From Actinomycetota bacterium (GTDB taxonomy: Bacteria; Actinomycetota; Thermoleophilia; UBA2241): 10,341 nt of DNA. Made by a program: the position numbers and the translations under genes. Below the pieces are notes generated by a model. The model saw only the letters and a list, made by a program, of their open reading frames with translations, was not told the origin of the DNA and did not search any database. The stretch lies in the NCBI GenBank assembly GCA_003158705.1, contig PMKX01000159.1, positions 1 through 10,341 on the forward strand. Reading direction: 5' to 3'. Position 1 is the first letter of the stretch, and every line of letters starts with the position of its first letter. Shown here piece after piece: positions 4,036-10,341 of this stretch.

Positions 4036-4134
4036 ATGAGCCGACTGCTGGGGAAGTTCCCGAGGGTTGCCTTCTACGCGCTCCTCCTCGTGTCGCTCGC
4101 ACTCGCGAGTGGCGCCGGAAGGAAGTGGAGTTAG
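4036..4134 (+). CDS. Micropeptide 1, 32-aa single-pass membrane peptide ending SGAGRKWS
   Basis: Not a family I can name. It has a basic N-terminus (MSRLLGKFPRV), one hydrophobic stretch (about residues 12-25), and the ending LALASGAGRKWS followed by TAG. The start ATG has AGAAAGGAAG a few bases upstream. It is supported as real mainly by its neighbour: the next small frame, 97 bases downstream, has the same length, the same layout and a nearly identical C-terminus. Likely a small inner-membrane peptide with its short RKWS tail at one face; a signal-like export peptide or a leader peptide are alternatives. It lies downstream of the possible sigma-28 promoter and upstream of the HD-GYP gene on the same strand. 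Confidence 0.68.
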   Translation: MSRLLGKFPRVAFYALLLVSLALASGAGRKWS

Positions 4135-4231: not shown

Positions 4232-4327
4232 ATGAAGAAGGTCCTTTTCAGGAACCGTTATGTGTTTGGACTTTTCGTTCTGCTCGCCTTCGCCTTGGCA
4301 AGTGGCGCCGGCGTGAAGTGGAGCTAG
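4232..4327 (+). CDS. Micropeptide 2, 31-aa paralogue ending SGAGVKWS
   Basis: Starts MKKVLFRNRYVFG, then a hydrophobic core (about residues 11-23) and the ending FALASGAGVKWS, then TAG. An excellent AGGAGG site lies upstream of the ATG. The C-terminal ten residues match micropeptide 1 apart from one position, while the N-terminal halves and codons have diverged, which points to a selected protein motif rather than a recent DNA repeat. The spacers before the two peptides also share fragments (CCTAG followed by CTCTC), suggesting an old tandem duplication. It ends 62 bases before the HD-GYP start, so co-transcription is likely. Function unknown; a small regulator or subunit of the neighbouring membrane proteins is one possibility. 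Confidence 0.72.
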   Translation: MKKVLFRNRYVFGLFVLLAFALASGAGVKWS

Positions 4328-4389: not shown

Positions 4390-5751
4390 TTGCTGGCCCG
4401 CAATCTCTCCCCAACCGAGACAGAACCGACGCGCGAGCACGAAGTGCTCCGCGATCGTGAGGCGACCCGCCCCGAACCCGTTCGACCCGCGGTCATCGCC
4501 TTCATCGTGCTCCTGTATGTCGCCGCCCTGACCCTGATCATCGCCGACCTCCCCCGGCTTCTCCAAGCCAAGTGGTTGGACATCCTCATCTTCGTCATCA
4601 TCACCACACTGGCGGAGCTATGGAACGTGGCCATCGGCCCGGACAGCGACATGTCGCTCTCCTTCACGACTCACTTTGCCGCCGCGGTCCTTTTCGGGCC
4701 GGCATTTGCAGCCGCCGTCGCCGGGTTGAGCGTGCTTGCCTCCGACGGCGTCATCCGTCGTCAGCCGCTGCGCCACATGGTGTTCAACGTCGCCAGCTTC
4801 GCCTTGGCTGCCGGCGTGACGGGTCTGGTCTTCGATGCGCTGCGCAGCACGCCGATCGGGCACTCGATAAGCCTGGGCGGCGACGCCGTGGCGCTCGTGG
4901 CGGCTGCGGCCGCCTACCTCATCGTCAACAACACGCAGGTCTCCCTTGTGATCAACTTCTCGGGAGGCCCGTTCTTTCACGAGTGGGCATCGTCGTTCCG
5001 CGACATCGGCGTCCCGTACGTGTCGATGGCGCCGCTGGGTGCGCTGCTGGCCTACGCCTATCAGGCCAGCCCTTGGACGCTGCTGTACTTCCCCATGCTC
5101 GTGATCGTCGTCTACAACGGGTTCAAGCTCTTCATGACCTTGCGTCACGAGACCGACCACGCCCTGGTGGCGCTGGCCGACTCCATCGACAAGCGCGATC
5201 AGTACACCTACCAGCACTCGATGCGTGTGGCGCGCTTCTCGAAGGAGATCGCCACGCACCTGGGCCTCCCGGCCCGCGAGGTCGACCTGTTGGTCTCCGC
5301 AGCTAGAGTCCACGACCTGGGCAAGATCGCCACGGACAACCGCGTGCTCTTCAAGCAGTCCTCGCTCACGGCCGAGGAACGGCGCATCATCAACATGCAT
5401 CCGGCCGAAGGCGGCGAGCTGGCCGGCAAGTTCAGCATGTTCCGCAAGGGGCGCCTGTACATCCGCCACCATCACGAGCGCTGGGACGGCAAGGGCTATC
5501 CCGACGGCTTGGCCGGTGTGGATATCCCGCTGGGGGCACGCATCATCGCCGTCGCCGACGCCTATGACGCGATGACGTCCGATAGGCCATACCGCAAGGC
5601 CTTGCCCCACGAGATCGCCCTGGCCGAGCTCGAGCGCGGCGCCGGCAAGCAGTTCGACCCTGCGGTCGTCGAGGCGTTCATCGCCCCGCAGCGTTTGCGG
5701 GCGCCTGTGCCGCTGACGACCCAGGTCCAGGAATCGTGCTCGTACTCCTAG
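4390..5751 (+). CDS. Membrane-anchored HD-GYP domain protein, probable cyclic-di-GMP phosphodiesterase
   Basis: A 453-aa protein: a short charged N-terminus (1-30), a membrane region of about six or seven hydrophobic segments (33-250), then a cytoplasmic HD-GYP domain (about 255-435). The metal-binding and signature residues are all visible: His276 in QHSMRVA, His308-Asp309 in VHDLGK, His337, the histidine cluster at 360-362, GYP at 369-371 and Asp390 in VADAYDAM. HD-GYP proteins hydrolyse cyclic-di-GMP to pGpG or GMP and influence motility, biofilm and development; the membrane region probably senses a signal. The start is uncertain: the TTG at 4390 gives the full frame but its ribosome site is weak, and a GTG about 18 codons later is possible. 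Its last 16 bases overlap the next gene, which suggests translational coupling. Confidence 0.94.
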   Translation: MLARNLSPTETEPTREHEVLRDREATRPEPVRPAVIAFIVLLYVAALTLIIADLPRLLQAKWLDILIFVIITTLAELWNVAIGPDSDMSLSFTTHFAAAVLFGPAFAAAVAGLSVLASDGVIRRQPLRHMVFNVASFALAAGVTGLVFDALRSTPIGHSISLGGDAVALVAAAAAYLIVNNTQVSLVINFSGGPFFHEWASSFRDIGVPYVSMAPLGALLAYAYQASPWTLLYFPMLVIVVYNGFKLFMTLRHETDHALVALADSIDKRDQYTYQHSMRVARFSKEIATHLGLPAREVDLLVSAARVHDLGKIATDNRVLFKQSSLTAEERRIINMHPAEGGELAGKFSMFRKGRLYIRHHHERWDGKGYPDGLAGVDIPLGARIIAVADAYDAMTSDRPYRKALPHEIALAELERGAGKQFDPAVVEAFIAPQRLRAPVPLTTQVQESCSYS

Positions 5752-6354: not shown

Positions 6355-7053
6355 CTACAGCGTGAAGCACGAGGAGACGCAGGCGCCCTTGAAATCGGCT
6401 GTGGTCGGCACGCAAGCGCTGATCGTGTACTTGGTGCAGTGCTTGCCGGTCCAGTTGACAGCATAGGTGCTGCTGTCGCCAGAGCCCTGATGAAGCGTCG
6501 CGGTAAGAGTGGCGACCTTCATCGTGTGCCAGCAGTTGATGTACTGGCAGATGGTGATGGTGACCTGATGGTTGTTCCAGGCCGGAGTCAGAGTACCGCT
6601 GATGGTCGTGCCGCAGTACTGGCCGGGCTTGACGCAAAGCGTGAGCTTGGCGCAGACCTTGACGCAGACCCAGCTGCTCGTGACTGGCCACATACCGTTT
6701 GCCGTGACCGCGACCTGGTATTGCGTGTTGCGCATCGGCTTGACGCTGAAGACCGCGCTGCCACAAGTGCCCGCAGACGCCGTGGCGACCTTCGTGATAT
6801 GGCCCGCTGAATCCTTGGCGGACAGCGTGAACGTCGCATTCCTCGGCACGGGACACACCTTGGCGGTGAGCTTGGCTGTGCCGCCGCTGACGACGCTGCT
6901 CGGGCTTGCACAGAGCGTGACCTTGGCGGTGGCGCCAAAGCTCATGGCGGGCACCAGGACGAGGACTAGCGCCACGCAGATGAAAGCGAGGACGAACCAG
7001 CGACCGTACCGCGTAACCCCCCCACTGGTCCCTGAAAGACTTGAGAACCGCAT
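6355..7053 (-). CDS. Secreted or membrane-anchored cysteine-rich protein with two Ig-like repeats
   Basis: A 232-aa protein of no family I can name. Residues 18-40 form an N-terminal hydrophobic segment after basic residues, either a signal peptide with possible cleavage near SFGA/TAK or an uncleaved anchor. The rest looks like two tandem beta-sandwich (bacterial Ig-like) repeats: each starts with AKVTLC or AKLTLC, has a middle strand with KVAT, and ends with a tyrosine-containing strand (TQYQVAVTA, CTKYTISA). The mature part holds 13 cysteines, many in XVC or XIC pairs, which suggests several disulfides outside the cell, or metal binding. The ATG at 7053 has GGAGG seven bases upstream. It has its own promoter and sits downstream of the RiPP genes on the same strand; any link with them is unproven. 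A second overlapping minus-strand frame (6350-7099) lacks such features and is rejected. Confidence 0.78.
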   Translation of the reverse strand: MRFSSLSGTSGGVTRYGRWFVLAFICVALVLVLVPAMSFGATAKVTLCASPSSVVSGGTAKLTAKVCPVPRNATFTLSAKDSAGHITKVATASAGTCGSAVFSVKPMRNTQYQVAVTANGMWPVTSSWVCVKVCAKLTLCVKPGQYCGTTISGTLTPAWNNHQVTITICQYINCWHTMKVATLTATLHQGSGDSSTYAVNWTGKHCTKYTISACVPTTADFKGACVSSCFTL

Positions 7054-7172: not shown

Positions 7173-8138
7173 TCAACATGTGTTGTCTGACGTGGAAATG
7201 GTCGTGCCTGTGCGAGCGCAGATGATCGGGCCCCAGTCACTCGGCCTTGACTCCACTCTGCCGACTTCCATGCCGGCGCGCTTGAGCTCGGCCGCTAGCG
7301 CGGCACCCGAGAAGTAGTGCGTCACTCCCGGGGGTGCACCTACAACGGCGTGCAGCAGACCATCTCCAGGGGCGCCCACACGGACGCCCACGCGCGCCAG
7401 CGTCCCGCGTACACGGCCAAGGGCCCGCACCAGGCGCCCGGCGCGCTCAAGAGGCAACGCGCACACAAGGGCGCGCCGGCCGCGCAGGGATGCCAGTACT
7501 TGCCCACGGCGTGCCTCGTCGAGTGCTGAGAAGATCCCAGCGGGCACGACAAGCGGCGCTGCGCTCCCTGCGCCCTCGCTCGGCTCGCCAGCACCCTCGG
7601 CCGAGGAGAGGTCCGCCGGCCGCAGCACACGCCAGCCCTCCACGGCCGGCAGCTCAGGCGTACCGCCGGCGGTCACCTCCATGGTGGGCACGGGCCGGCC
7701 AAGCACTTGACGAACTAGGAGCCCCGACTCCTGAAGTAGCCGACGCACCCTCATGCGGGCTGCCCTCAGTGCGCGACGCGCATCCACGACCGCCAGCGCT
7801 CGCCGGCCGCCGGAGAGTGGTCCACGGCCGACGACCTCTACGGCACGGCCAATGACAGCCTCGGGCGCAACAGGAGGGTCGGCGACGTACCGATTGTCGC
7901 CGCGGCAGACGATCTCGGCGGCGGTCACCCTCATCACGCGATGTGTGACGACGGCGTCGTCCAGGACGAAGGTCAGCACGTCACCGCGCGCGACGCTGGT
8001 GACGGGGACGACGCGGATGAGCTCGCCGGAAAGGAAAGTGGGCCGCATGCTGGCCCCGCGCACTCGAAGATGGACCCAGCCCTGCTGGTGCAGAGCGCGG
8101 CGCACGTCGTCCCCGCGCGGGTCCTCAGGCGTGAACAT
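7173..8138 (-). CDS. S26-like peptidase domain fused to an unassigned C-terminal region, RiPP-locus protein
   Basis: A 321-aa protein from the ATG at 8138. Residues 22-115 form an S24/S26-type fold: GASMRPTF with the candidate nucleophile Ser30, RGDVLTF at 51-57, VVTHRVMRV with His66, and RGDN at 79-82. The Ser plus His arrangement matches the archaeal/ER-type signal peptidase branch rather than the Ser/Lys bacterial type. There is no obvious membrane helix, so it is probably cytoplasmic. Residues about 120-321 are Arg/Ala/Gly-rich; the stretch GVTHYFSGAALAAELKRAG then MEVGRVE and PIICAR resembles the C-terminal end of class I methyltransferases, but I see no glycine-rich SAM motif. The frame is open back to 8201, but that start would overlap the PqqD gene by 38 bases; 8138 leaves a 25-base gap. 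Likely role, inferred from context: leader removal or a regulatory function for the adjacent precursor. Confidence 0.83.
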   Translation of the reverse strand: MFTPEDPRGDDVRRALHQQGWVHLRVRGASMRPTFLSGELIRVVPVTSVARGDVLTFVLDDAVVTHRVMRVTAAEIVCRGDNRYVADPPVAPEAVIGRAVEVVGRGPLSGGRRALAVVDARRALRAARMRVRRLLQESGLLVRQVLGRPVPTMEVTAGGTPELPAVEGWRVLRPADLSSAEGAGEPSEGAGSAAPLVVPAGIFSALDEARRGQVLASLRGRRALVCALPLERAGRLVRALGRVRGTLARVGVRVGAPGDGLLHAVVGAPPGVTHYFSGAALAAELKRAGMEVGRVESRPSDWGPIICARTGTTISTSDNTC

Positions 8139-8163
8139 CGGAGATCGGCCCGCTCGCCGCCGC

Positions 8164-8433
8164 TCAGACTCTGATGAGATCCTTGTGCAACAGCTCGTCA
8201 AGGAACGCCAGGATGTCCGTCTCGGCTACGGCGAGCTCGACCTCGTACTCGCCGGAGATGACCGCGGCGATCTCGGCGACGGTACGCTCCCCATCGACAA
8301 GTTCCCATACTCGCGTGCCGACGTCGTTGAAGTTGTGCAACTCGCTCGTGTCCGGATGCATCACGTAGAAGGCATCGTCGATCTGGCGGACTGCCGTGTC
8401 GGTGTTTTGCAGAGGCTTGTCGCTGATGTTCAC
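8164..8433 (-). CDS. PqqD-family RiPP recognition protein
   Basis: An 89-aa PqqD-like protein, a RiPP recognition element that binds precursor leader peptides and presents them to a radical SAM enzyme. Family features: an early strand AVRQIDDAFYVMHP, then HNFNDVGTRVWELVDGERTV (about residues 33-52), the typical winged-helix core, and a C-terminal helix ending in LIRV. I chose the GTG at 8433 because GGGAG lies five bases upstream; the GTG at 8445 would add four residues but has no ribosome site. An upstream inverted repeat (arms 8459-8464 and 8477-8482) lies in the 61-base gap after the HPr-kinase-like gene. It is encoded between that gene and the peptidase gene, all in the same direction. 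Confidence 0.92.
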   Translation of the reverse strand: MNISDKPLQNTDTAVRQIDDAFYVMHPDTSELHNFNDVGTRVWELVDGERTVAEIAAVISGEYEVELAVAETDILAFLDELLHKDLIRV

Positions 8434-8506
8434 GTCGTCTCCCACGGTCTTTGTTGTGCCTGCCCCGCACCGGCACGGCAGGTCGCGGACTGCGACGAGT
8501 CTACCA

Positions 8507-9331
8507 TCACGGCATCACGGTGGCGCGCATGTCCTCTTTGACCATCTGCCAGAAGGCCGGCGTCTTGCGAAAACGAAGACGACGCACCGGCACGCGATCG
8601 GCCAACGCCTCACAGACCTCCAGCGCCGGCACGGTCAGAGCGCGGTCTCGCACACCGACGACTGCACTGACGAGCAGCCGCCTCATGCCTTCGCCGCGCG
8701 ACATGTGCTCTACCGCGTCGCACTCGTCTTGCTGCAAGGCATAGAAGGCCGACAGAGGGTACGCACCGGGGACCGGAGTAGTCAGCCTGTTCTTCTGGCG
8801 GAAAGGCAGCGAGTACAACCGCGCCCCGTGCGGCTCCAGCGCCAGATAGGTGAGCTCCTCACTGATCAGCTCGGCCCCCGCCATTCTCGCCAACACGCCG
8901 GCAGTAGTCTTACCGGCACCCGACCGACCAAGGAAGACCGCCGCAAGACCCTCGCCGACGACGGATGAGGAATGGAGTATCGCCCCTCGACGCAGCTCCA
9001 AGGACATCACTTGGGCCACCGGTGCCAGAATATTGTCGAGGCATACGGTCCAGGGGCCGCGCAGACTCACATCCACGTGGCGAGCATCCAGATCGACCAC
9101 GGCTCGATTCCCATTGGCATGAAAGGTCACCTGCCGGCCGTCGCGGCTCACCACACCGGGGCTGAACTCCCAACTGGGCTTCTCCGTCCCCGGAGCGCCG
9201 CCAACCACAGCGTCGACGACGAAATCGGCATGCCCGTCAGTAACGAAGCCGGCCAGGCTGGTCATCCCGTCGTCGAGTGAGAACTCGATGCCGTTCACCT
9301 GAGCCACCAACGAGCCAAGAAGCAGCTTCAT
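8507..9331 (-). CDS. HPr-kinase-like ATPase of a RiPP locus
   Basis: A 274-aa protein of the HPr kinase/PEP-carboxykinase-like P-loop superfamily. Visible: ILHSSSV at 118-124 (the histidine-containing strand before the P-loop), the Walker A loop GRSGAGKTT at 135-143, and an acidic pair in LISEELTYL (Glu158, Glu159) where HPr kinases usually have two aspartates. LPFRQKN then a C-terminal helical part with a basic KEDMR tail follow. It lacks the N-terminal domain of true HPr kinases. Homologues in some lasso-peptide clusters phosphorylate a serine of the peptide; others next to PqqD proteins are uncharacterised. Here the target may be a Ser or Thr in the precursor, which is inference. The ATG at 9331 has GAGGT closely upstream. 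It is the first gene after the intra-operon hairpin. Confidence 0.88.
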   Translation of the reverse strand: MKLLLGSLVAQVNGIEFSLDDGMTSLAGFVTDGHADFVVDAVVGGAPGTEKPSWEFSPGVVSRDGRQVTFHANGNRAVVDLDARHVDVSLRGPWTVCLDNILAPVAQVMSLELRRGAILHSSSVVGEGLAAVFLGRSGAGKTTAGVLARMAGAELISEELTYLALEPHGARLYSLPFRQKNRLTTPVPGAYPLSAFYALQQDECDAVEHMSRGEGMRRLLVSAVVGVRDRALTVPALEVCEALADRVPVRRLRFRKTPAFWQMVKEDMRATVMP

Positions 9332-9390
9332 GCGACCTCACCCATCTGTTGCAGACCACCCCATGCCCTGTTCCGAACCCGGACAGAGAA

Positions 9391-9421
9391 AGGTGCGCGG
9401 GCCACGAAAGCCCGCGCACCT
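9391..9421 (-). terminator. Hairpin between the precursor and the downstream modification genes
   Basis: A perfect 12-bp stem (arms 9391-9402 and 9410-9421) with a 7-base loop, 22 bases after the precursor stop codon. On the minus strand it is followed by a weak T-rich stretch (TTCTCT). It looks like a leaky terminator or a 3' stabiliser, a common way to make more precursor than enzyme in RiPP operons. Confidence 0.72.
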
Positions 9422-9443
9422 GAAGAACCACGTGTGGTCGAGA

Positions 9444-9590
9444 TTACTGCCCTGACGGATTGAGCTCCGTGCCGCTGAAGTCCGGGTCACAGCCGGGGTC
9501 ATCGTTGGCGCTGATGAACGTGCAAGCTGCCGCCAGCGTCTCGAACACTGATTCACTCTCGACTCTTGGCTTCGAGTAAGTCTTCTTCAT
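9444..9590 (-). CDS. RiPP precursor peptide, 48 aa, two cysteines
   Basis: A short frame between the radical SAM gene and the HPr-kinase-like gene. It begins MKKTYSKPRV, a Y-x-K-P-x-V pattern seen at the start of many small precursor peptides near PqqD/SPASM enzymes; residues 11-22 are an acidic-to-alanine leader helix (VFETLAAA), Cys23 follows, and the C-terminal part ends GCDPDFSGTELNPSGQ with Cys34. The ribosome site is AGGGGGTGA about nine bases before the ATG. The leader/core boundary is not known; a core starting around residue 23-31 would contain one or two cysteines, two prolines or more, and Ser/Thr residues (Ser39, Thr41, Ser46) that a kinase could modify. Placement, size, charge pattern and the following hairpin support the call. 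No homologue search was possible. Confidence 0.82.
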   Translation of the reverse strand: MKKTYSKPRVESESVFETLAAACTFISANDDPGCDPDFSGTELNPSGQ

Positions 9591-9644
9591 ATTGGTGTTC
9601 ACCCCCTTGTCGATTCCTCTTAGGAACTATTACCACACTTGCTT

Positions 9645-10341
9645 CTACTGATGCAATGCGCGACGCATGTCCTTGACCAGGCTGGCGAGCTCACAGGCTC
9701 GGCGGCTGGGGCCGGAAATGTCTCCATCTTCGACAACGGCCAGACGCGGACAACGCACTGTGCAGTAGTCGAGCAAGTCGCAGTGACTACATACGGGCAG
9801 CGGCTCGCGCATGGCACGACGATGAGCCGCCGCCGCGGGCCCCCGCCACACTTCGGCGAAAGGCGTGCACGCGACGTTGCCCACCGACGGCGGGAGGCCC
9901 ATGCAGGGGTACACGTCCCCGTTGGACTCGACGTAGGCCGCCGTGATGCCTGCACCACAGTTGCCCGCGGCGCGTGACGGCACCTCGCCCGGCTCGCTCG
10001 CCAGGCGCCCTTCGCGGGTCTTGTCCTGCAGGAAGTGATACATGTAGAAGTCACGCAACTGAGCGATGCTCACGCGGTGCTCGAGCACGCCGATGTCGCC
10101 GTTTGCCCTGGGCGCGACGTTGGGGTCGAACCTGTAGCGACAGCCTATGTCGTCGGCCATGGCGATGATATTGGGGAACTCGTCGAAGGTGCCCTGCATG
10201 AGCACGCTGTGGATGTCACAACGCACACCACGCTCCTGTAGATACCTGACCGTGGCCAGCGAGCGCGCGAAGGAGCCGGGCACCCCGGTGACCTTCTCGT
10301 GTCCCTCCGCCGTGGAGCCGTAGATGCTCACGCTGACAGCA
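9645..10341 (-). CDS. Radical SAM/SPASM peptide-modifying enzyme, N-terminus outside the window
   Basis: The visible 231 residues are the C-terminal part; the radical SAM CxxxCxxC motif must lie beyond base 10341. The segment starts with VSIYGSTAEGHEKVTG, a typical radical SAM barrel strand and helix in this enzyme group, then RYRFDPNVAPR. The SPASM domain carries all seven cysteines in canonical spacing: C-x12-G-x4-C (NCGAG to YPCMG), then CSHC, x5, C, x3, C (the HCDLLDYCTVRC part), and a last cysteine in RACELA. Such domains bind two auxiliary iron-sulfur clusters. Members make thioether (sactipeptide or ranthipeptide), carbon-carbon or other crosslinks in RiPPs. It ends 54 bases before the precursor start and is the most upstream gene of the locus seen here. 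Confidence 0.95.
   Translation of the reverse strand, partial: AVSVSIYGSTAEGHEKVTGVPGSFARSLATVRYLQERGVRCDIHSVLMQGTFDEFPNIIAMADDIGCRYRFDPNVAPRANGDIGVLEHRVSIAQLRDFYMYHFLQDKTREGRLASEPGEVPSRAAGNCGAGITAAYVESNGDVYPCMGLPPSVGNVACTPFAEVWRGPAAAAHRRAMREPLPVCSHCDLLDYCTVRCPRLAVVEDGDISGPSRRACELASLVKDMRRALHQ

What the first reader, a model, noticed from the sequence alone, without database searches (positions are those of the whole stretch)
7173..10341. Candidate undescribed RiPP system: SPASM enzyme, 48-aa precursor, HPr-kinase-like ATPase, PqqD, Ser/His peptidase fusion
Five same-strand genes form a compact set around a short peptide. PqqD plus SPASM is a known precursor-modifying pair; adding an HPr-kinase-like protein and an S26-type peptidase fusion gives a chemistry that could combine crosslinking, phosphorylation and leader removal. 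No lasso cyclase, lanthionine synthetase or dedicated transporter is seen in the window, so it does not fit those classes.
Basis: partly seen in the sequence, partly recalled or inferred. Interest (0 to 1): 0.82.

Follow-up and report, generated by a model that had tools for sequence, protein, structure and literature searches.

The report
Peptide-modifying cassette with a kinase
The contig carries five genes that look like a small assembly line for a modified peptide (radical enzyme, peptide, kinase-like protein, peptide-binding chaperone and protease), and the same parts recur around related peptides in distant bacteria, so it looks like a real peptide pathway whose product is still unknown.

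Summary
In detail: five minus-strand genes encode a contig-cut radical SAM/SPASM protein, a 48-aa peptide, an HPr-kinase/PEPCK-fold protein, PqqD and a soluble S24/S26-type peptidase with an extra C-terminal part. The peptide is a real gene: a profile from other lineages' precursors finds it at E=2.8e-10, a paralogue differs about twice as often per silent site as per coding site, and a relative keeps the five-gene order. Related precursors occur in 44 of 299 genomes of an Acidobacteria genome's class; 27 of 42 precursors at 40 such loci have all four partners within 3.5 kb. Small residues before a conserved Cys suit a signal-peptidase-type cut. All 42 end in Ser, which HPr-kinase homologues phosphorylate in lasso precursors; the window's own peptide ends in Gln, so its site is open. 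Best reading: PqqD-guided radical cross-linking at Cys, phosphorylation, leader removal; all chemistry is inferred. No NCBIfam equivalog cut-off was met in rows listed; no paper found joins SPASM with HPr kinase. New variant of a known kind.

The parts
9645..10340 (-). Radical SAM/SPASM peptide maturase, contig-cut (C-terminal 231 of 359 aa)
   Evidence: Pfam SPASM 6.8e-12; full-length twin P0021; nearest solved structures by sequence PqqE 4.9e-16 and SkfB 3.4e-15
9444..9590 (-). 48-aa precursor peptide MKKTYSKPRVESESVFETLAAA|CTFISANDDPGCDPDFSGTELNPSGQ (the bar is the proposed cleavage site, inferred), stop included
9391..9421 (-). 13-bp hairpin with a T-rich tail between precursor and HprK-like gene; possible attenuator that lets the peptide be made in excess of the enzymes (inferred)
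   Evidence: 3 terminator-like sites against 1.9 in shuffles; this is the longest stem of the three
8507..9331 (-). HPr-kinase/PEPCK-fold protein, 274 aa: H120, Walker A GRSGAGKT, acidic pair E158-E159
8164..8445 (-). PqqD-family leader-binding protein (RRE), 93 aa
   Evidence: Pfam PqqD 1.1e-17, 64.6 bits against 23.4; best NCBIfam match a lasso PqqD model, 1.5e-11, below its cut-off
7173..8201 (-). Soluble S24/S26-type Ser/His peptidase (S51, H87, box GDN 101-103 counted from TTG 8201; alternative ATG start 8138) plus ~200 aa C-terminal part of unknown family

Best explanation
It is a RiPP cassette. PqqD binds the leader motif YxKPxVxSExxFET and presents the peptide to the SPASM radical SAM enzyme, which installs one or more radical cross-links, most likely thioether, involving the conserved Cys residues of the core. 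The HPr-kinase-like protein phosphorylates a Ser/Thr of the linear peptide (the C-terminal Ser in most family members; an internal Ser/Thr in the window's peptide). The soluble signal-peptidase-type Ser/His enzyme then cuts the leader after A-x-A, leaving a product that begins with Cys. Shown: the genes, their linkage, the peptide's conservation, the kinase-like fold, the catalytic motifs, and the A-x-A and C-terminal Ser regularities. Inferred: every chemical step, their order, the type of cross-link and the export route. Rough odds: RiPP cassette 0.9; peptidase as leader peptidase 0.6; kinase acting on the peptide 0.55; thioether chemistry 0.45.
For: Linkage: of 49 precursors, 32 have rSAM, HprK, PqqD and S26 within 3.5 kb on the same strand and 5 more have all but S26; among the 42 at the 40 Acidobacteria-class loci these are 27 and 4. 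Precursor distribution: 2 of 15 family genomes, the same two with a close HprK homologue; 1 of 396 in a phylum sample, the own genome; 44 of 299 in the class of an Acidobacteria genome. Kinase: model pLDDT 93.7, matches PEPCK and HprK/P; H120, G138, A139, G140, K141 invariant over 29 sequences; HPr kinase homologues phosphorylate the C-terminal Ser of lasso precursors (PMC8498205, passages). C-terminal Ser in 42 of 42 of those precursors and 119 of 120 listed catalogue clusters. Peptidase: in 44 cassette ORFs picked by phmmer, each with SMxP, the window's H87 column is His in 44 and D102 is Asp in 42; none has a membrane-like stretch (max KD 1.6). Cleavage: 49 of 49 precursors have A, V or G at -3 and 47 of 49 A, G, S or T at -1 before the Cys. 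PqqD nearest to a lasso PqqD model. rSAM nearest to PqqE and SkfB; the window's clade groups beside the Acidobacteria cassette clade (85/83).
Against: No biochemical data. The window's precursor ends in Gln and its paralogue in Gly, so the C-terminal Ser rule fails in this very genome. The acidic pair is EE here, as in L009 and L027, and DE or DD in most others. The window HprK scores only E=0.02 against HprK_rel_A, 14 bits against 200; Foldseek ranks PEPCK ahead of HprK/P. Only one close relative (L009) carries the whole set. Precursors are related, so counts are not independent events. In 17 of 49 precursors at least one partner was not seen within 3.5 kb on the same strand; several are on short contigs and two (L122, L126) have HprK on the other strand. 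Of 11 diverged precursors picked by eye, 3 do not end in Ser and 2 (LGN, LFN) lack the small residues before Cys. Pfam's S26 model is below cut-off for the peptidase. No transporter was seen.
Confidence: 0.72

Rival explanations
1. The cassette makes a small peptide-derived cofactor or signal (as PQQ and mycofactocin are made from peptides) rather than a secreted antimicrobial RiPP.
For: In the best-scoring Acidobacteria-like group the core is almost frozen: 100 of 120 listed clusters end in RRS and 114 of 120 have exactly two Cys ten apart. The rSAM's closest solved structure is PqqE. No transporter is seen. Core pieces CT, SANDD, CDP and GTEL are kept between the two paralogues of the window genome.
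Against: The 120 listed clusters were the best-scoring of 619, so they are biased to one group; the 40 fetched loci vary more in the core. Cores of the window and L009 differ strongly. No downstream cofactor-processing or cofactor-using genes were identified; none were searched for.
Confidence: 0.2
2. A lasso-peptide relative: the leader motif and PqqD serve a lasso cyclase encoded elsewhere, for example next to the orphan second precursor on G000:C114, where an asparagine-synthase gene begins.
For: The best PqqD match is a lasso model, and the YxKPxV leader resembles the lasso YxxPxL motif (PMC10368454, passage). The orphan precursor ends about 155 nt before an AsnB start. The window core has Asp at positions 8 and 9 counted from Cys1.
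Against: The AsnB fragment matches ordinary amidotransferase/AsnB models far better (7.6e-25, 7.4e-22) than the lasso cyclase model (7.4e-5). The genome, 74% complete, has only a sub-threshold hit to lasso peptidase PF13471 (20.1 bits against 26, G000:C72). Acidobacteria cores such as CGKLPGQGG have no acidic residue at positions 7-9. The cassette carries a SPASM enzyme instead of a cyclase.
Confidence: 0.05
3. The HprK-like protein is not a peptide kinase but another nucleotide-dependent helper, such as an ATPase or phosphatase that drives peptide handling.
Against: Walker A and His are invariant over 29 aligned sequences. The C-terminal Ser is near-universal in the wider family.
Confidence: 0.25

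Closest known systems
SynChlorMet cassette (NCBIfam ScmC, ScmD, ScmE, ScmF; TIGR04248-TIGR04251)
   Same: A PqqD-like protein, SPASM proteins and ScmC, which matches HprK-like relatives of this cassette (L014 2.1e-10; L050 2.7e-12)
   Different: No tested protein reaches a cut-off (full-length rSAM 113.6 bits against 400 for ScmE; L014 HprK 40.4 against 125 for ScmC; the window HprK is not listed for ScmC). Here there is one rSAM, a peptidase and an identified precursor. No held paper mentions the cassette.
Phosphorylated lasso peptides (paeninodin type, with HPr kinase homologue)
   Same: PqqD-like B1, HPr kinase homologue, C-terminal Ser in precursors (PMC8498205, passages); YxxPxL leader motif (PMC10368454, passage)
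   Different: No lasso cyclase in the window and no B2 peptidase over cut-off in the genome; SPASM enzyme and S24/S26-type peptidase instead; the window's own peptide lacks the C-terminal Ser
Sactipeptide/ranthipeptide maturases (StsB, SkfB, AlbA, PapB)
   Same: SPASM radical SAM enzymes acting on Cys-containing peptides (recalled); StsB is the best NCBIfam model for the full-length enzyme (3e-36)
   Different: Below cut-off (125 bits against 625); here PqqD stands alone and an HprK-like partner is present
PQQ and mycofactocin maturation
   Same: PqqD-type protein plus SPASM enzyme acting on a short peptide (recalled); PqqE is the nearest solved structure
   Different: Different precursor; HprK-like protein and S24/S26-type peptidase added; mycofactocin and PqqE models below cut-off

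Membership tests
RiPP biosynthetic cassette (PqqD/SPASM type) | short conserved precursor beside its maturase | tested here: met
RiPP biosynthetic cassette (PqqD/SPASM type) | radical SAM CxxxCxxC plus SPASM domain | tested here: met
   SPASM over cut-off in the window protein; CxxxCxxC seen only in the full-length twin P0021
RiPP biosynthetic cassette (PqqD/SPASM type) | leader-binding PqqD/RRE protein | tested here: met
   PF05402 64.6 bits against 23.4
RiPP biosynthetic cassette (PqqD/SPASM type) | covalently modified peptide | not testable with these tools
   needs mass spectrometry
SynChlorMet cassette | ScmC, ScmD, ScmE or ScmF model over cut-off | tested here: not met
Lasso peptide | lasso cyclase and B2 peptidase | tested here: not met
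   no cyclase among the window's ORFs; PF13471 not over cut-off in the 74%-complete genome, one weaker hit; the whole genome was not searched for a cyclase
HPr kinase-like peptide kinase | PEPCK/HprK fold with H, Walker A and acidic pair | tested here: met
HPr kinase-like peptide kinase | C-terminal Ser substrate | tested here: not met
   window peptide ends GQ, paralogue SG; met in 42 of 42 precursors from the 40 Acidobacteria-class loci
S26 signal-peptidase-type enzyme | catalytic Ser (SMxP) and His, box GD | tested here: met
   S51, H87, GDN 101-103 shared with L009; His in 44 of 44 aligned cassette ORFs
S26 signal-peptidase-type enzyme | S26 or signal peptidase I model over cut-off | tested here: not met
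   PF10502 14.0 against 22.9 (Pfam S24 is over its own); TIGR02228 44.7 against 51.85
S26 signal-peptidase-type enzyme | membrane anchor of type I signal peptidases | tested here: not met
   max 19-residue hydropathy 1.33 in the window protein
Sactipeptide/ranthipeptide | thioether cross-link | not testable with these tools
   inferred only from Cys conservation and nearest models

The most novel reading that the evidence does not exclude
A widespread, so far unrecognised RiPP class in which a SPASM-cross-linked peptide with an N-terminal Cys is also phosphorylated by an HPr-kinase homologue (usually at its C-terminal Ser) and released by a soluble signal-peptidase-type enzyme, found in Acidobacteriota and Actinomycetota and, with diverged parts, in other phyla; in Acidobacteria its near-frozen core would make it a signal or cofactor rather than a weapon.
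Probability: 0.35. Interest if true: 0.8.

Novelty: new variant of a known kind. Interest (0 to 1): 0.62.

Why it matters
It would join two RiPP chemistries not found together in the papers searched (radical cross-linking and peptide phosphorylation), give signal-peptidase-type enzymes a cytoplasmic job as leader peptidases, and hand experimenters a compact five-gene set with sharp predictions: which bond is cut, which residue is phosphorylated. It also gives a family of 619 catalogue clusters, named 'hypothetical protein' in the listed rows that carry a name, a likely role.

Tried and rejected
Chance ORF: rejected by the leave-out profile, the shuffles and the lower rate of coding change. Lasso system: judged unlikely. 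Named NCBIfam systems: no equivalog over cut-off in the rows listed for the cassette enzymes scanned (best 25 rows per protein); the general SPASM domain model was met. The first genome-contig scan with the single HprK protein found no relative; the alignment-based scan found 20 loci. The family search with HprK also gave four weak matches, 3e-8 to 6.6e-4, besides the two strong ones. The structure of the peptidase ORF was predicted from two sequences only, came out poor (pLDDT 47.4) and was not searched, so the C-terminal part stays unexplained; its strand/helix order recalls the tail of class I methyltransferases, which is recalled, not tested. VIA-align lists no HprK chain among the 50 rows shown, which is no evidence of absence. 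The promoter scan found no sigma-70-type site. A strict His regex caught few peptidases; the alignment replaced it. The rough precursor regex scan gave mostly noise; and the profile replaced it. Paper searches gave nothing joining the parts; PMC12710340 and PMC9062424, searched by term only, hold no 'HPr' or 'kinase'.
Full report
WHAT IS THERE. The window is one complete contig of a 1.93-Mb, 74%-complete genome. Its right third carries five minus-strand genes in the order radical SAM/SPASM (cut by the contig end), 48-aa peptide, HprK-like protein, PqqD, S24/S26-type peptidase with a C-terminal part. A catalogue protein identical over the visible 231 aa is 359 aa long and has CNLRCYHC near its start (P0021). 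The peptide starts with ATG behind AAGGGGG; a 13-bp hairpin with a T-rich tail follows it, before the HprK gene.

IS THE PEPTIDE REAL. A profile made from five precursors of other lineages, leaving out the window and L009, picks the window ORF first among 760 ORFs of three sources (E=2.8e-10), then the paralogue (5.3e-9) and the L009 precursor (1.2e-6); the next hit is 0.29, and the best of 300 block shuffles of the window is 0.016. The genome holds a second precursor on another contig (G000:C114). Over 46 aligned codons 27 residues agree, with pS 0.63 and pN 0.29 (core alone 0.49 and 0.31). In absolute terms more differences are coding (31.5) than silent (19.5); it is the rate per site that is lower. 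The sequence is short and no test of significance was made.

RELATIVES. In the same family 2 of 15 genomes carry the precursor, the same two that hold a close HprK homologue (four others match weakly, 3e-8 to 6.6e-4). The second, G001, has coordinates that match record PKYM01000341.1 (Actinomycetota palsa_645, L009); it has the identical five-gene order and, read by eye, HD-GYP and DUF5317 homologues next door as in the window. In a phylum sample only the own genome matched, 1 of 396 (G001 is not among the rows shown). The precursor profile hit 619 catalogue clusters, 120 of them listed, and 44 of 299 genomes in the class of an Acidobacteria genome. I fetched 40 loci, one from each of 40 of those 44 genomes; the other four held seed precursors. 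Five further hits, in G1001 (two), G929, G813 and G820, were not fetched.

NEIGHBOURHOOD COUNT. The 40 loci gave 42 precursors; with 7 others (L009, L010, L014, L015, L018, L020, L059) that is 49. All four partners lie within 3.5 kb on the same strand for 32 of 49 (27 of 42), all but S26 for 5 of 49 (4 of 42), S26 only for 4, S26 and rSAM for 2, HprK and S26 for 1, none for 5 (the 42-subset is counted from its rows). So 17 of 49 lack at least one partner by this test. Several of these are on short contigs; L122 and L126 have HprK on the opposite strand. Two gene orders dominate: HprK-PqqD-rSAM-precursor-S26 and precursor-S26-HprK-PqqD-rSAM. More diverged HprK, PqqD and rSAM sets occur in records titled Nitrospirae, Lentisphaerae and Omnitrophota and in other families of the window's class.

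THE PRECURSORS. Consensus: K-x-Y-x-K-P-x-V ... E-x-x-[FY]-E-T-x-A-L-A-C-G-K ... C ... S. Of the 49, all have A, V or G at -3 before the first core Cys, 47 have A, G, S or T at -1 (two have Gln), the next Cys is 10 further on in 43, and 48 end in Ser; the one ending in Gly is the window genome's paralogue. The window's own precursor is not among these 49; it has A-A-A before Cys and ends in Gln. All 42 from the Acidobacteria-class loci end in Ser, as do 119 of 120 listed clusters. Of 11 diverged cassette precursors picked by eye end in Ser and 3 do not, and 9 have small residues at -3 and -1 while 2 (LGN, LFN) do not; two more, in L025 and L045, do not end in Ser. These sequences are related, so the numbers are not independent events.

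HOW IT LIKELY WORKS. From established knowledge: PqqD-type proteins bind leaders and SPASM enzymes make radical cross-links in peptides. From PMC8498205 (passages seen): HPr kinase homologues phosphorylate the C-terminal Ser of linear lasso precursors, with little specificity for the rest of the peptide. From PMC10368454 (passages seen): one such kinase phosphorylated Ser3, a ring residue, of a lasso precursor variant. Together with the A-x-A/Cys junction this suggests leader binding, radical modification at the Cys-bearing core, phosphorylation, and cleavage before Cys23 by a cytoplasmic signal-peptidase-type protease. In the window the kinase step needs an internal Ser or Thr, or the protein does something else.

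NOVELTY. Searches of the held library for SPASM, PqqD, RiPP or radical SAM with HPr kinase or HprK gave no paper that joins SPASM with HPr kinase; SynChlorMet gave none. [quoted passage not shown] Most subscription papers are not held, so absence from print is not proven. I rate it a new variant of PqqD/SPASM RiPP cassettes.

Noticed in passing
G000:C114, L059:381-539 (-): A second, orphan precursor in the same genome (ends SG), with an ordinary asparagine synthase start downstream and an 80-aa unknown protein upstream; no cassette seen beside it.
   Followed up: partly
L054:6091-8265 (-); L055:5346-7634 (-); L056:5350-7509 (+): Same-family genomes G010, G014 and G009 carry open frames of 720-763 aa whose radical SAM part is followed by an HprK-like part (phmmer 6.7e-7, 0.0089 and 4.5e-7; Pfam sees only the radical SAM part in L054), with further radical SAM genes, PqqD and, in G010, a peptidase: an apparent natural fusion of cross-linker and kinase.
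   Followed up: partly
L054:4153-4380 (-); L050:3411-3713 (-): Candidate precursors of those other cassettes share PQLVVL-x-R-x-x-PEESVL-x-x-CK, seen by eye only.
   Followed up: no
window 4036-4134 (+) and 4232-4327 (+); L009:12210-12302 (-); L136: Tandem ~31-aa single-span peptides ending ALASGAGxKWS upstream of the HD-GYP gene; a tandem pair of matches lies in G010 (4.0e-4, 0.009), weak ones in G001 and G002 (about 0.08-0.09). The similar peptide in L009 was seen by eye and was not listed.
   Followed up: partly
window 6355-7053 (-): Cys-rich 232-aa protein with a hydrophobic N-terminal stretch downstream of the cassette and no convincing family match; L009 has a different large protein upstream of its rSAM gene.
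   Followed up: no
L049:4143-4310 and 4506-4685 (-); L052:5183-5353 (+): Cys-rich precursors (YxxPxL..LAYAC..) in HprK-PqqD-rSAM cassettes that end in Cys or Asp rather than Ser, breaking the C-terminal Ser rule.
   Followed up: no
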